Below are positions 7,161 to 12,094 of a stretch of 27,979 nt of DNA, piece by piece. Numbering within the stretch: the first letter of the stretch is position 1; each line of letters opens with the position of its first letter. A program made the position numbers and the translations under genes. This DNA comes from a virus. The stretch covers positions 1-27,979 of the IMG/VR virus record IMGVR_UViG_3300028800_000274, one strand, 5' to 3'. Below the pieces are notes generated by a model, which was not told the origin of the DNA, ran no database searches, and saw only the letters and a list, made by a program, of their open reading frames with translations.

Positions 7161-7415
7161 TTATCTATACCAACCATCCATTTGGAATTGGGTATCATTA
7201 TCTTCATATTCCATGATTTCTAACAATGGATCGCCCCAATGGACTTCTTTATCACCATTGTCCTGATGTCTATTGTCATACTCTGGAGTTGGCGTTCCTG
7301 GACGCTCAATTTCATGGCCATTGTTTTTGACATCCTCTGTTGGATAACAAACAAAGCCATCATCATTCATGGCAACAAGACTAAAGCTTGCGACTAATAG
7401 TAAGTAACGAATCAT
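7161..7415 (-). CDS. secreted acidic small protein, 84 aa
   Basis: Reverse-strand gene with an N-terminal signal peptide (MIRYLLLVASFSLVAMNDDG). The mature part is acidic, rich in Asp, Asn, Glu and Pro, and has a single Cys. The start lies 1 nt after the stop of the upstream reverse gene (7417-7581), and its ribosome-binding site would be inside that gene's end. This makes it the last gene of a three-gene reverse operon of exported proteins. No family is recognised. Export rather than a virion role is inferred from the signal sequence. Confidence 0.65.
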   Translation of the reverse strand: MIRYLLLVASFSLVAMNDDGFVCYPTEDVKNNGHEIERPGTPTPEYDNRHQDNGDKEVHWGDPLLEIMEYEDNDTQFQMDGWYR

Positions 7416-7416
7416 A

Positions 7417-7581
7417 TTATGCTTTCTTTAATTTATTAACTTTATTTCTAATTTTTCTGTATTTACGAACCGTTTTCTTTTCCTGTTTAGTTTCAACATA
7501 GCAATAAACACCTGGTTCAAGTTCTTCAACTACAACCTCTGCACATGCCGTGGTAAACAATAACAACAATAGGTATTTCAA
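7417..7581 (-). CDS. secreted or lipidated basic small protein, 54 aa (TTG start)
   Basis: A TTG start at 7581 overlaps the stop of the upstream reverse gene as TTGA, and a GTGGGG ribosome-binding site precedes it. The protein begins MKYLLLLLFTTACAEVVVEE: a short positively charged n-region and a leucine-rich core, then either a weak lipobox (TTAC) or a signal peptidase I site after ACA. The C-terminal half is strongly basic (KKTVRKYRKIRNKVNKLKKA). Tight overlaps on both sides (TTGA upstream, a 1-nt gap downstream) support translation despite the non-ATG start. Function unknown. Confidence 0.55.
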   Translation of the reverse strand: MKYLLLLLFTTACAEVVVEELEPGVYCYVETKQEKKTVRKYRKIRNKVNKLKKA

Positions 7582-7901
7582 ATTACCCCACTTATTGGTT
7601 TATTATCATCTGCCGGTTTACTGTCATAATCTGCTCTGTCAATTGGTGAGGATTGCGGTGGCGAACAGCGATCATAGGTAGGTTCAAAATACCATTCCTT
7701 ATTGTCGGGATTCTGTACCTTATCATTATCACGTTCAATGGTATAATCTTTTTTATCATCACCACTAGGATACCTGGTAGTATCATATGTTCCATTATCA
7801 TTATGGTAATTAGCGCCTTCATTCATGTGTTCAGTGCCACTACCAAACCATGCTTGTGCTGATGCGCCCGTCAGTAATAAAGCTAGTAACGATTTGTTCA
7901 T
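7578..7901 (-). CDS. secreted hydrophilic protein, 107 aa
   Basis: First gene of the reverse operon. A GGAAGGACT ribosome-binding site precedes the ATG at 7901. The N-terminus MNKSLLALLLTGASAQAWFG is a textbook signal peptide with cleavage expected after AQA. The mature protein is highly polar, rich in Asp, Asn, Tyr and Pro, with a single Cys, and looks like an extended or surface-exposed chain. It resembles the 7161 product in composition (NDNGTYD, DNKEWYFEP versus DNRHQDNGD). A candidate promoter lies upstream at 7943-7970. Confidence 0.65.
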   Translation of the reverse strand: MNKSLLALLLTGASAQAWFGSGTEHMNEGANYHNDNGTYDTTRYPSGDDKKDYTIERDNDKVQNPDNKEWYFEPTYDRCSPPQSSPIDRADYDSKPADDNKPISGVI

Positions 7902-9997: not shown

Positions 9998-10276
9998 TTA
10001 CTGATTATATAGATCATTTTTTCTTGGTATTGGTACAACAAGATGGGAAAATTGTAATGGTACATAGGGTATACTTATTGATCTAAAGCCAATGGCAGCG
10101 CTTTGTGCTTCTAGGCGAGCTATATTTCTTTGGACAAATGCAGCACGAGCAGTTCCATTCTGAATTGATTGCCGAGCATAGTTATTAACAATAAGAATAT
10201 TCTGCGCAGGCAATGTTTGTTGTGGTATTTGTTCCATAGAAAATAGATTGGTGGTCAAGCATAATAATATTAACAT
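9998..10276 (-). CDS. secreted hypothetical protein, 92 aa
   Basis: The start at 10276 has AAGGGA upstream. The N-terminus MLILLCLTTNLFSMEQIPQQ is a short signal peptide, probably cleaved after FS or FSM. The mature protein is Gln/Ala/Arg-rich in its first half and Pro/Val-rich at its end (IPYVPLQFSHLVVPIPRKND). The [A/S]-M-[N/E] sequence after the hydrophobic core recurs in the 7161 and 7999 products. With the 59-aa gene it forms a reverse pair just ahead of the capsid gene. Function unknown. Confidence 0.6.
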   Translation of the reverse strand: MLILLCLTTNLFSMEQIPQQTLPAQNILIVNNYARQSIQNGTARAAFVQRNIARLEAQSAAIGFRSISIPYVPLQFSHLVVPIPRKNDLYNQ

Positions 10277-10450: not shown

Positions 10451-12094
10451 ATGGCAATAACAACTACATCGTCTCTTCCTGCACCAGTTCAGCAAAGTTT
10501 TAGCTATAAGCTGCTTTCTGTTCCCGTGCCAAATATGATCCACAAAATTCCGGCTATGAAGAAAAACATGCCGAGAAATGGTGGTACGACTTTACGTATG
10601 CGTCGTTACAATCCGTTAAATACAGCGATGGTACCACTAGGAAATTCTGGTGTTACTCCTCCGCCACAAAATTTAACAGCGGTTGATATTGATGCGAAGA
10701 TAAGTTTTTACGGTAAAAAATTTCAATTTGAAATAATGGGTGCCGTATAAATTGATTTGTCGAAAAGACCTATGTGCAAATCAATGAGCAGGTTAATAAA
10801 TGGTTCTTTGAAATTCCTTGGTTTTGTAAAGCAGATAGCCTGCTTTAAATCCGCTCTGATTGACTTGGAAGCGCTAACGTAAAGACGAGCGCGACAAGGG
10901 CGAAGACATTAAATAAGAGTTTATGTCGCGCTGAGAGACTAAGGCGAGTGGACACATATGTGAAGCGATAGTCCGAACCCATAAGAAACTATGGGAGGGA
11001 GGAATAACAAGACTCCCCGCTCGAAAGAGTCATAAAGTAACAGATTGTACATTACAAAACCAAGATCCAGTTCTTAATGAATGTGCTGCACGTCTTGGTG
11101 TTTCATTACGCCAAACAGAAGACCAACTTACTCGTGATATGTTGGCTTCAACAGCATCATTTATTAACTGTACTGGTGGCGTAAATGGTGATAACCCAAC
11201 GGAAATCACCTTATCTGATACCAAAACGGTAGTTCGTACTCTTTTAAGCAATAATGCTTACACGATTATGGACAATATCGAAGGTGAAGATAAATTCGGT
11301 AAACAAAGTGCCGAATTAAAATTTTCTCTGATAGACTTGGAAACCGTAGTGGCACTAAGCTAACCGGCAACAAGGGGCAAGAATGAAAATAATAAAATGC
11401 GCTAAGTGTTTAAATATAAAACCAAATGATAATGATATTCGCTGGAATATGATATTGGCAAAAGATTGTATTGATATAGAGAATTTTGATGGGTATGTGA
11501 ATATCTGCGATGAATGTAACAAAGAAATACAATCAATATTAAACAAAGCAGTTTTTAATTTTATTCAGCCTGAACGACTAAGTGAGAAGACCTCGAAAGA
11601 GGATGCGATAGTCTGAACACTATAGAAATATAGTGAGGGAGATTCGAAGAGGTTTCCCCGCCTGAAAAGGTCAAAAAAGTAACAGCCTGACTGCTCCAGT
11701 TCGTAATGCCTATTTTGCTTTATGCAATGCAAATCTAACGGGTGATTTGGAAAACGTTAATACGTTTATACAAATAAACCAATATCCTGCTCCTATGAAT
11801 GCTTTGCGTTCAGAATGGGGTGCTATTGGCAACCTTAGATTCTTAATTTCATCTATTGGTTCGGTAAGTCCAAATGCTTCATCGCTTGGTGCAGATGTAT
11901 ACAATATATTCTGTGTCGGTATGGAAGCTTATGCTTGTATAGAACAAGATGGTTATAGCGCAAGCTTTATCTATCGTCCGCCAATATATGATGGGCCATT
12001 GGCTCTTAACGTATCCGTCGGCTATAAATTTGCAGAGGTGCCTCGCATCACTAATGATTTATGGGTAATCAATTTACGCGCAACATTGGCTTAA
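10451..12094 (+). CDS. major capsid protein, N4-gp56 family, in four exons
   Basis: The coat protein gene is split. My model is exons 10451-10714, 10768-10793, 11048-11300 and 11690-12094, giving 948 nt and 315 residues. Exon 1 starts at ATG 10451 after AGGAG and carries the family N-terminus (LLSVPVPNMIHKIPAMKKNM, …GVTPPPQNLTAVDIDAKISF). Joining the exons restores YG-TYVQINEQV-TLQNQDPVLNE and GEDKFG-TAPVRNAYFAL, which match the pattern I remember for N4-gp56 capsid proteins. The remaining key parts are RQTEDQLTRDML and EWGAIGNLRFLISSIGSVSP. Every junction keeps frame, and each is preceded by a G and has a U.G-ended P1 helix. Without removal of the first 53-nt segment, translation stops at 10750 after 99 residues. 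Family and exon assignment are strong; whether the 53-nt segment is really removed is unproven. Confidence 0.85.
10715..10767 (+). other. 53-nt intron-like insertion with P1 and P10 but no catalytic core
   Basis: This segment interrupts the capsid frame and contains an in-frame TAA (10748-10750). Exon bases TACGGT (10709-10714) pair with GCCGTA (10742-10747), including the U.G pair expected at a group I 5' splice site. ATGGGT (10736-10741) pairs with ACCTAT (10768-10773) as a 6-bp P10 with one G.U. The last base is G, and joining gives YG-TYV. It is far too short for P3-P8. A perfect 9-bp stem, ATTGATTTG (10751-10759) with CAAATCAAT (10777-10785), places the 3' junction in a 17-nt loop. It may be a remnant intron, an assembly collapse, a translational bypass element or a substrate of a core acting in trans. 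Confidence 0.7.
10768..10793 (+). other. 26-nt capsid micro-exon
   Basis: The segment reads acc tat gtg caa atc aat gag cag gt and encodes TYVQINEQ plus two bases of a Val codon completed by exon 3. It supplies the residues that the family has between YG and TLQNQDPVLNE. It is bounded by a G on the left and by the GCAGGT 5' splice site of the next intron on the right. Part of it (10777-10785) pairs with the upstream insertion. Confidence 0.75.
10794..11047 (+). ncRNA. group I intron, 254 nt, no ORF
   Basis: The 5' exon GCAGGT (10788-10793) pairs with the internal guide GCCTGC (10838-10843), with U.G at the splice site. The core has CTCTGATTGACTTGGAA, the P7 strands GACTA (about 10937) and TAGTC (about 10971), and a P9 hairpin CCCATA…TATGGG. 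A CTC-GAAA-GAG tetraloop hairpin and the end AAAGTAACAGATTG follow. P10 is short (TA with TA). The core and 3' end align with the intron at 11301. Inside the P1 loop, TAAAGCAG (10827-10834) can pair with CTGCTTTA (10840-10847) and compete for the guide. It carries no reading frame, so any mobility would depend on another endonuclease. Confidence 0.88.
11301..11689 (+). ncRNA. group I intron, 389 nt, with internal ORF
   Basis: Exon TTCGGT (11295-11300) pairs perfectly with GCCGAA (11310-11315), ending in U.G. AGT (11307-11309) pairs with 3' exon ACT (11690-11692) as P10. The core contains CTCTGATAGACTTGGAA and the P7 strands GACTA (about 11577) and TAGTC (about 11610). It also has a CCTC-GAAA-GAGG P8-type hairpin and a P9 hairpin CACTATA-GAAA-TATAGTG. 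The end is a CCT-GAAA-AGG hairpin and AAAGTAACAGCCTG. It is related to the 10794 intron over the core and 3' end. Splicing joins GEDKFG to TAPVRN in frame. The ORF at 11383-11616 sits in a peripheral loop and runs into the P7-P8 region. Confidence 0.92.
11383..11616 (+). CDS. intron-encoded zinc-ribbon-like protein, 77 aa
   Basis: The ORF lies inside the second full group I intron and starts at ATG 11383 after AAGGGGC. It carries two C-x2-C pairs, CAKC near residue 6 and CDEC near residue 42, spaced as in a small zinc ribbon. A helix follows (NKEIQSILNKAVFNFIQPER). The last 15 or so residues are encoded by the intron's P7-P8 strands, and the stop codon uses the TGA just after the TAGTC strand. 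Intron ORFs are usually homing endonucleases, but no HNH, GIY-YIG or LAGLIDADG motif is visible. It may be a decayed endonuclease, its zinc-finger part, or a splicing cofactor. Confidence 0.65.
   Translation: MKIIKCAKCLNIKPNDNDIRWNMILAKDCIDIENFDGYVNICDECNKEIQSILNKAVFNFIQPERLSEKTSKEDAIV

What the first reader, a model, noticed from the sequence alone, without database searches (positions are those of the whole stretch)
10451..12094. Major capsid gene split into four exons by three interruptions
Direct reading gives disconnected capsid fragments, but removing 10715-10767, 10794-11047 and 11301-11689 yields one 315-residue N4-gp56-type protein with all junctions in frame. The reconstructed conserved stretches (YG-TYV, NEQV-TLQNQDPVLNE, DKFG-TAPVRN) are the kind that automated gene calling would miss and report as separate hypothetical or truncated genes.
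Basis: partly seen in the sequence, partly recalled or inferred. Interest (0 to 1): 0.85.

Follow-up and report, generated by a model that had tools for sequence, protein, structure and literature searches.

The report
Core-less mini-intron in phage capsid gene
A phage's major capsid gene is cut by two ordinary self-splicing introns plus a 53-base interruption too small to splice itself; dozens of related viruses share it, always beside a full intron to which it is base-paired, which suggests that the neighbour's ribozyme removes it.

Summary
Removing 10715-10767, 10794-11047 and 11301-11689 gives a 315-aa N4-gp56 capsid protein (TIGR04387, E 5e-41) that aligns without gaps across all three junctions to uninterrupted relatives (84-93% identity). 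Interruptions 2 and 3 are group I introns: P1 with U.G, P3-P9 core, terminal G. Both score below Rfam's gathering cut-off.

The surprise is interruption 1. At 53 nt it has no room for a core, yet it carries a complete group I guide: P1 with the 5' exon, P10 with the 3' exon, terminal G. About 98 viral contigs carry such a 28-59-nt insert at this site. P1 and P10 covary. No insert ending in a base other than G was found (0 against 93). A second helix pairs the insert with the exon; in most loci (54 of 65 by prediction) it ends exactly 8 nt before the next full intron, whichever of several sites that intron occupies. Every mini-insert with sequence beyond it has such an intron; only about 18% of genes without the insert do.

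Best explanation: a core-less, non-autonomous group I intron excised by the downstream intron's ribozyme. The closest precedent is the 63-75-nt Phialophora introns. No RNA evidence exists here. Six relatives carry a possible 4-nt version at another site.

The parts
10451..10714 (+). capsid exon 1 (residues 1-88), ends ...TTTTACGGT
10715..10767 (+). mini-intron, 53 nt, core-less; ends in G
10708..10714 (+). P1 of the mini-intron, 5' strand in exon 1 (pairs with 10742-10748, 6 of 7 pairs, U.G at the splice site)
10742..10748 (+). internal guide of the mini-intron, P1 3' strand (GCCGUAU)
10738..10741 (+). P10 strand of the mini-intron (GGGU), pairs with 3' exon 10768-10771 (ACCU)
10751..10759 (+). 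docking helix D, 5' strand in the mini-intron (AUUGAUUUG)
10777..10785 (+). docking helix D, 3' strand in exon 2 (CAAAUCAAU), 9/9 pairs, ends 8 nt before the 5' splice site of intron 2
10768..10793 (+). capsid exon 2, 26-nt micro-exon (TYVQINEQ-V)
10794..11047 (+). group I intron 2, 254 nt, no ORF; proposed source of the core that also excises the mini-intron
10786..10793 (+). P1 5' strand of intron 2 (GAGCAGGU), pairs with guide 10838-10845, 8/8
10838..10845 (+). internal guide of intron 2 (GCCUGCUU)
10851..10973 (+). core of intron 2: P3 10851-10856/10946-10951, P4 10864-10867/10895-10898, P5 10871-10875/10888-10892, P7 10937-10941/10969-10973
11048..11300 (+). capsid exon 3
11301..11689 (+). 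group I intron 3, 389 nt; P1 AAUUCGGU 11293-11300 / GCCGAAUU 11310-11317
11383..11616 (+). 77-aa ORF inside intron 3 with CxxC...CxxC, no family match
11690..12094 (+). capsid exon 4

Best explanation
Interruption 1 is a non-autonomous group I intron reduced to a guide. It keeps the internal guide that aligns both of its splice sites (P1 and P10) and its terminal G, but has no catalytic core. A helix (D) between its 3' half and the exon places its P1 next to the neighbouring full group I intron. That intron's core would do both transesterifications on the mini-intron first; the D partner then leaves with the mini-intron, the downstream intron's own P1 takes the active site, and it splices itself. 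SHOWN by comparison: P1, P10, terminal G, helix D and its register, one-way dependence on a full downstream intron, gain or loss as a unit. INFERRED: that the RNA is spliced, that the downstream core is the catalyst, that it acts in cis, and the order of steps.
For: 66 distinct inserts of 28-59 nt at this site in viral contigs. P1 pairs in 57/57 distinct sets, with a C-G to U-A change in 3; the wobble pair of P10 is kept 57/57 through four pair types, against 34 expected after shuffling. L196, where the 3' exon codon is CAA rather than ACN, has UUG in the P10 position. Terminal G: 93 contigs with G, 0 with any other base when the pattern demands non-G. Helix D: permutation 0/20000 in classes A and B; the predicted exon strand ends exactly 8 nt before the next 5' splice site in 38/44 (A), 11/16 (B) and 5/5 (C), and starts 3 nt after P1 in 37/44, 11/16 and 5/5. 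Co-occurrence: all 64-75 dereplicated minis with downstream sequence have a full intron there; genes with no insert 23/130 to 28/144; genes with a full intron at site 1, 1/5 (Fisher p below 1e-31). L156 (both elements) and L238 (neither) are 99.5% identical over 182 nt up to the insert. Full introns occur at the same site with the same guide (L096), a plausible ancestor. The shortest inserts (28 nt) are filled by guide, spacer and D strand, leaving no room for P3-P8. 63 of 66 put a stop in frame, so an essential gene needs the insert removed.
Against: No transcript or in-vitro data. No 3D model shows that the core can reach P1 of the mini-intron through D. P1 is short (5 bp + U.G) and nearly invariant, so its covariation is thin; class C has only 5 loci. 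Related sequences are not independent, so the p-values overstate the evidence. The full introns score 21.8-24.8 bits against Rfam RF00028's gathering score of 50, and no relative reached it. A proposed switch hairpin in intron 2 that would hide its guide was not better than shuffles (6.1 against 5.65 pairs).
Confidence: 0.72

Rival explanations
1. The mini-intron is a minimal autonomous group I intron that splices itself with a tiny structure helped by flanking exon, as claimed for the 63-75-nt Phialophora introns.
For: Those introns also have P1, P10 and a pairing between intron and 3' exon (PM), and needed about 300 nt of flank to splice in vitro (PMC3160393).
Against: They are said to have a P7; here the shortest insert is 28 nt and is filled by P1/P10, a 3-nt spacer and the D strand. 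Self-sufficiency does not explain why every mini has a full intron just downstream, or why D sits 8 nt from that intron's 5' splice site at different sites.
Confidence: 0.1
2. [quoted passage not shown]
For: Similar length, glycine codon at the take-off point, in-frame stop (PMC5009743).
Against: A landing codon matching the take-off codon is expected; take-off is GGT here and the last codon of the insert is never GGN in 66 cases. Bypassing predicts neither P10 wobble covariation, nor the terminal G, nor dependence on a downstream intron.
Confidence: 0.05
3. Spliced as a group I intron, but by free intron RNA or a core acting in trans, or with a protein maturase, rather than by the neighbouring core in cis.
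For: Guide and splice sites would be the same; lichen fungi are thought to use dedicated machinery for degenerate group I introns (PMC8527467).
Against: The fixed 8-nt register of D to the neighbour's 5' splice site and the one-way co-occurrence favour cis.
Confidence: 0.1
4. A decaying intron remnant or an assembly artefact in a dead capsid gene.
For: The insert breaks the frame.
Against: The same element, with covarying pairs, occurs in 66 distinct sequences from many metagenomes, and the other exons are intact and conserved.
Confidence: 0.02

Closest known systems
Small putative group I introns of Phialophora SSU rRNA (PaSSU, 63-75 nt; PMC3160393)
   Same: [quoted passage not shown] splicing in vitro needed long flanks.
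   Different: Here 28-59 nt, terminal G instead of U, protein gene of a phage, no P7, obligatory full intron downstream, D fixed 8 nt from that intron's 5' splice site.
Ordinary phage group I introns, several in one gene (e.g. Twort, Bastillevirinae; PMC11878797)
   Same: Introns 2 and 3 here; several introns per gene; splicing across neighbouring introns is known as exon skipping (Twort orf142).
   Different: In exon skipping both partners have cores and a whole exon is lost; here a core-less intron would be cut out cleanly.
T4 gene 60 translational bypass (50-nt gap; PMC5009743)
   Same: Short frame-breaking insert in a phage gene, perhaps derived from a group I intron.
   Different: No matched landing codon; P1/P10/terminal G instead; needs a neighbouring intron.
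Euglena group III introns (own knowledge)
   Same: Introns reduced to splice-site parts that rely on catalytic RNA supplied from elsewhere.
   Different: Those derive from group II; none is known to the author for group I.

Membership tests
N4-gp56 major capsid protein (TIGR04387) | curated score cut-off, full-length match | tested here: met
   141 bits against 60; 4-310 of the protein on 1-320/324
Group I intron: interruptions 2 and 3 | U at the end of the 5' exon in a U.G pair with the guide; G at the intron end | tested here: met
   8/8 P1 pairs in both; T and G at all boundaries
Group I intron: interruptions 2 and 3 | conserved core P3-P9 with the P7 guanosine site | tested here: met
   helices located. 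In intron 2 and 8 homologues P7 keeps 4 of 5 pairs in 9/9 and P9 covaries; P4 and P6 align poorly. Intron 3 was checked in this one sequence only
Group I intron: interruptions 2 and 3 | Rfam RF00028 gathering score | tested here: not met
   24.8 and 21.8 bits against 50, E 0.00097 and 0.0079 in an 1801-base search; none of 16 loci of relatives reached it. A score cut-off, not a structural feature
Group I intron: interruption 1 (53 nt) | P1, P10 and terminal G | tested here: met
Group I intron: interruption 1 (53 nt) | own catalytic core (P3-P8) | tested here: not met
   28-59 nt, filled by guide, spacer and D; hence not filed as an autonomous group I intron
Group I intron: interruption 1 (53 nt) | guanosine-initiated splicing in vitro | not testable with these tools
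   needs an experiment
[quoted passage not shown]
   take-off GGT, last insert codon AAG/TTG/ATG/TAG/CTG/CCG/ACG
Phialophora-type small group I introns | P7 within the intron and terminal U | tested here: not met
   no room for P7; terminal G (PMC3160393)

The most novel reading that the evidence does not exclude
Group I introns have a non-autonomous class: guide-only introns, as short as 4 nt, that depend on a neighbouring intron's ribozyme through a helix ending at a fixed distance from its 5' splice site, so one ribozyme serves two introns in a fixed order. The 4-nt case is outside this window: six contigs carry TATG/TTCG/TACG at capsid codon 118, all with a full intron at codon 143 whose upstream exon (GCGGAG, 8 nt before the splice site) complements the 5' exon (CTCCGT).
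Probability: 0.4. Interest if true: 0.95.

Novelty: new variant of a known kind. Interest (0 to 1): 0.88.

Why it matters
If true, group I ribozymes can be shared: an intron can lose its whole core and survive by docking to a neighbour, as non-autonomous transposons use a relative's enzyme. That gives a testable route from self-splicing introns to introns that depend on RNA supplied from elsewhere, one idea for the origin of spliceosomal splicing. It may also explain why the tiny Phialophora introns needed long flanks. In practice, capsid genes of a common environmental phage group are broken up in annotation, and introns of 28-59 nt without a core are likely to escape intron searches that look for the core.

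Tried and rejected
Rfam at gathering threshold finds no intron in the window or in relatives. A hairpin in L1 of intron 2 that would hide its guide appears in the MFE fold, but guide complementarity in L1 was not clearly above shuffles; kept only as an idea. Scanning about 5.8 Mb (both strands of all loci held) for P1+P10+D+downstream guide gave 58 hits at capsid site 1 and 74 scattered ones, none convincing except one more site-1 mini in L177, so no mini-intron was found in other genes. Splice-aware alignment of all capsid loci found convincing short inserts at site 1 only until 1-14-nt jumps were allowed. A search for uninterrupted near-identical genes that might be cDNA gave allelic intron-free genes, not cDNA (one search had a register error and was repeated; one search's dereplication had the same error and is replaced; its raw counts stand). 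One search's class assignment failed and was replaced. Bypass and decay were considered and rejected (see rivals).

Full report
CHECK. The joined exons give a 315-aa protein that matches N4-gp56 capsid (TIGR04387, 5e-41). Seventy-nine of the 80 nearest IMG/VR relatives encode it without interruption and without a gap at any of the three junctions; the 80th, L064, has a 197-nt intron of the same type elsewhere in the gene. The window is one 27,979-base virus record. Portal (P22-like), terminase and scaffold genes surround the capsid gene, and by core motifs no other gene in the window carries such an intron.

INTRONS 2 AND 3. Both exons end in T, both introns end in G, and P1 pairs 8/8 with a U.G at the splice site. 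Core helices P3, P4, P5, P7, P8 and P9 can be placed in both (intron 3's P5 has 3 of 4 pairs, and the script's automatic position for its P3 3' strand is a wrong occurrence). For intron 2 and eight homologues at the same site, P9 covaries strongly and P7 keeps 4 of 5 pairs throughout; P4 and P6 align poorly. Rfam's general model scores both well below its gathering cut-off, and no relative reaches it. I file them as group I introns on structure, not on Rfam. Intron 2 folds more stably than shuffles (z -4.5).

INTERRUPTION 1. Fifty-three nt cannot hold a group I core. Yet GCCGUA in it pairs with UACGGU at the exon end (P1), GGGU just before it pairs with ACCU at the start of the next exon (P10), and it ends in G. 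To see whether this is a remnant, I scanned viral contigs for the 3' junction with an insert in front. Of 93 contigs found, together with the window, 86 loci had short inserts, 65 of them distinct; lengths are 28-59 nt with no fixed frame, and 63 of 66 bring a stop in frame. Demanding a base other than G at the insert end gave no hit. The third codon base of the 3' exon and its P10 partner agree in all 57 distinct sets, through four pair types (34 expected after shuffling). One locus, L196, changes all three bases together (CAA with UUG).

DOCKING HELIX. The part of the insert after P1 is complementary to the exon downstream: AUUGAUUUG with CAAAUCAAU in the window (9/9; also in the MFE fold, whose z-score is only -1.4). 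Across loci the exon partner moves with the next full intron. In class A (intron after EQ|V, 44 loci), B (DPV|L, 16) and C (VSL|R, 5) the predicted helix most often starts 3 nt after P1 and its exon strand ends exactly 8 nt before that intron's 5' splice site, 54 of 65 in all. In L085, counted as 10 nt because I assumed the class B splice site, the intron starts 2 nt earlier, which again gives 8 (my reading's output). Eight nt is the exon strand of the downstream intron's own P1. Pairing with the own exon beats exchanged exons in A and B (0 of 20000 permutations each) and weakly in C (624 of 20000).

DEPENDENCE. After dereplication, all 64-75 minis with downstream sequence have a full intron within aa 95-118 (nine truncated contigs were counted from the visible intron start; L106 ends at the splice site and L101 was spurious, both left out); genes without the insert have one in 23 of 130 to 28 of 144; genes with a full intron at site 1 in 1 of 5. 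The no-insert sample includes loci chosen for having a site-A intron, which makes the contrast conservative, and loci ranked for being uninterrupted, which works the other way; in a set drawn mostly by an uninterrupted site 1 alone 31 of about 134 had one. Full introns at site A also occur without a mini, so the dependence is one-way. L156 and L238 are 99.5% identical up to the insert and differ by mini plus downstream intron together. Site-A introns with a mini often carry an extended P1 loop with the motif UCUUUGA(A/C)AU (39 of 52, against 2 of 14 without. One of those 14, L196, was later seen to have a mini). Its role is unknown.

MECHANISM. The anatomy fits a group I intron that kept its guide and lost its core, with helix D acting like a P2 that tethers P1 to the neighbour's core. 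The order mini first, then intron 2, follows because D needs the mini. Splicing, the identity of the catalyst and the order are inference. Full introns at site 1 with the same guide (L096) suggest the ancestor.

A SECOND, SMALLER CASE. Six contigs have a 4-nt insert at codon 118. All have a full intron at codon 143 (17 of 327 loci do; P 8e-9). CTCCGT before the insert is complementary to GCGGAG, which ends 8 nt before that intron; the full GGCGGAGTTAACGG occurs in no other locus although the exon between has diverged to 76-92% identity. A scan for a non-G end found nothing. P10 is only 2-3 bp, and +1 frameshifting is not excluded. This is a lead, not a result.

PRIOR ART. The Phialophora introns (PMC3160393) are the nearest relatives in form. 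They are reported to hold a P7 and end in U. Searches of the open-access library found no group I intron excised by a neighbour's core; subscription journals are mostly not covered.

Noticed in passing
L093, L264, L265, L333, L334, L335 (capsid codon 118): 4-nt insert TATG/TTCG/TACG breaks the capsid frame in six contigs, always with a full intron at codon 143 whose upstream exon complements the exon before the insert.
   Followed up: partly
capsid genes of relatives, e.g. L087, L147, L216: The capsid gene of this phage group is an intron hot spot: full introns at many sites (aa 79, 96, 103, 104, 116, 143, 180, 260, 298 and others), several in one gene.
   Followed up: partly
window 10794-10837 and class A introns of relatives: Extended P1 loop with conserved UCUUUGA(A/C)AU, mostly in introns that have an upstream mini-intron (39/52 against 2/14); role unknown.
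   Followed up: partly
window 11383-11616: 77-aa ORF in intron 3 with two CxxC pairs; no Pfam or PHROG match.
   Followed up: no
window 7161-7415, 7578-7901, 9998-10276 (- strand): Three small minus-strand ORFs begin with signal-peptide-like stretches among plus-strand structural genes.
   Followed up: no
L330, L331, L332: Capsid relatives on contigs binned as Thermotoga, Saccharibacteria and Parachlamydiaceae (64-82% identity); host unknown, bins may be wrong.
   Followed up: no
L188 and L179, site-A introns: Extended P1 loop without an upstream mini; the loop holds UAGGU, like the P10 element of the minis.
   Followed up: no
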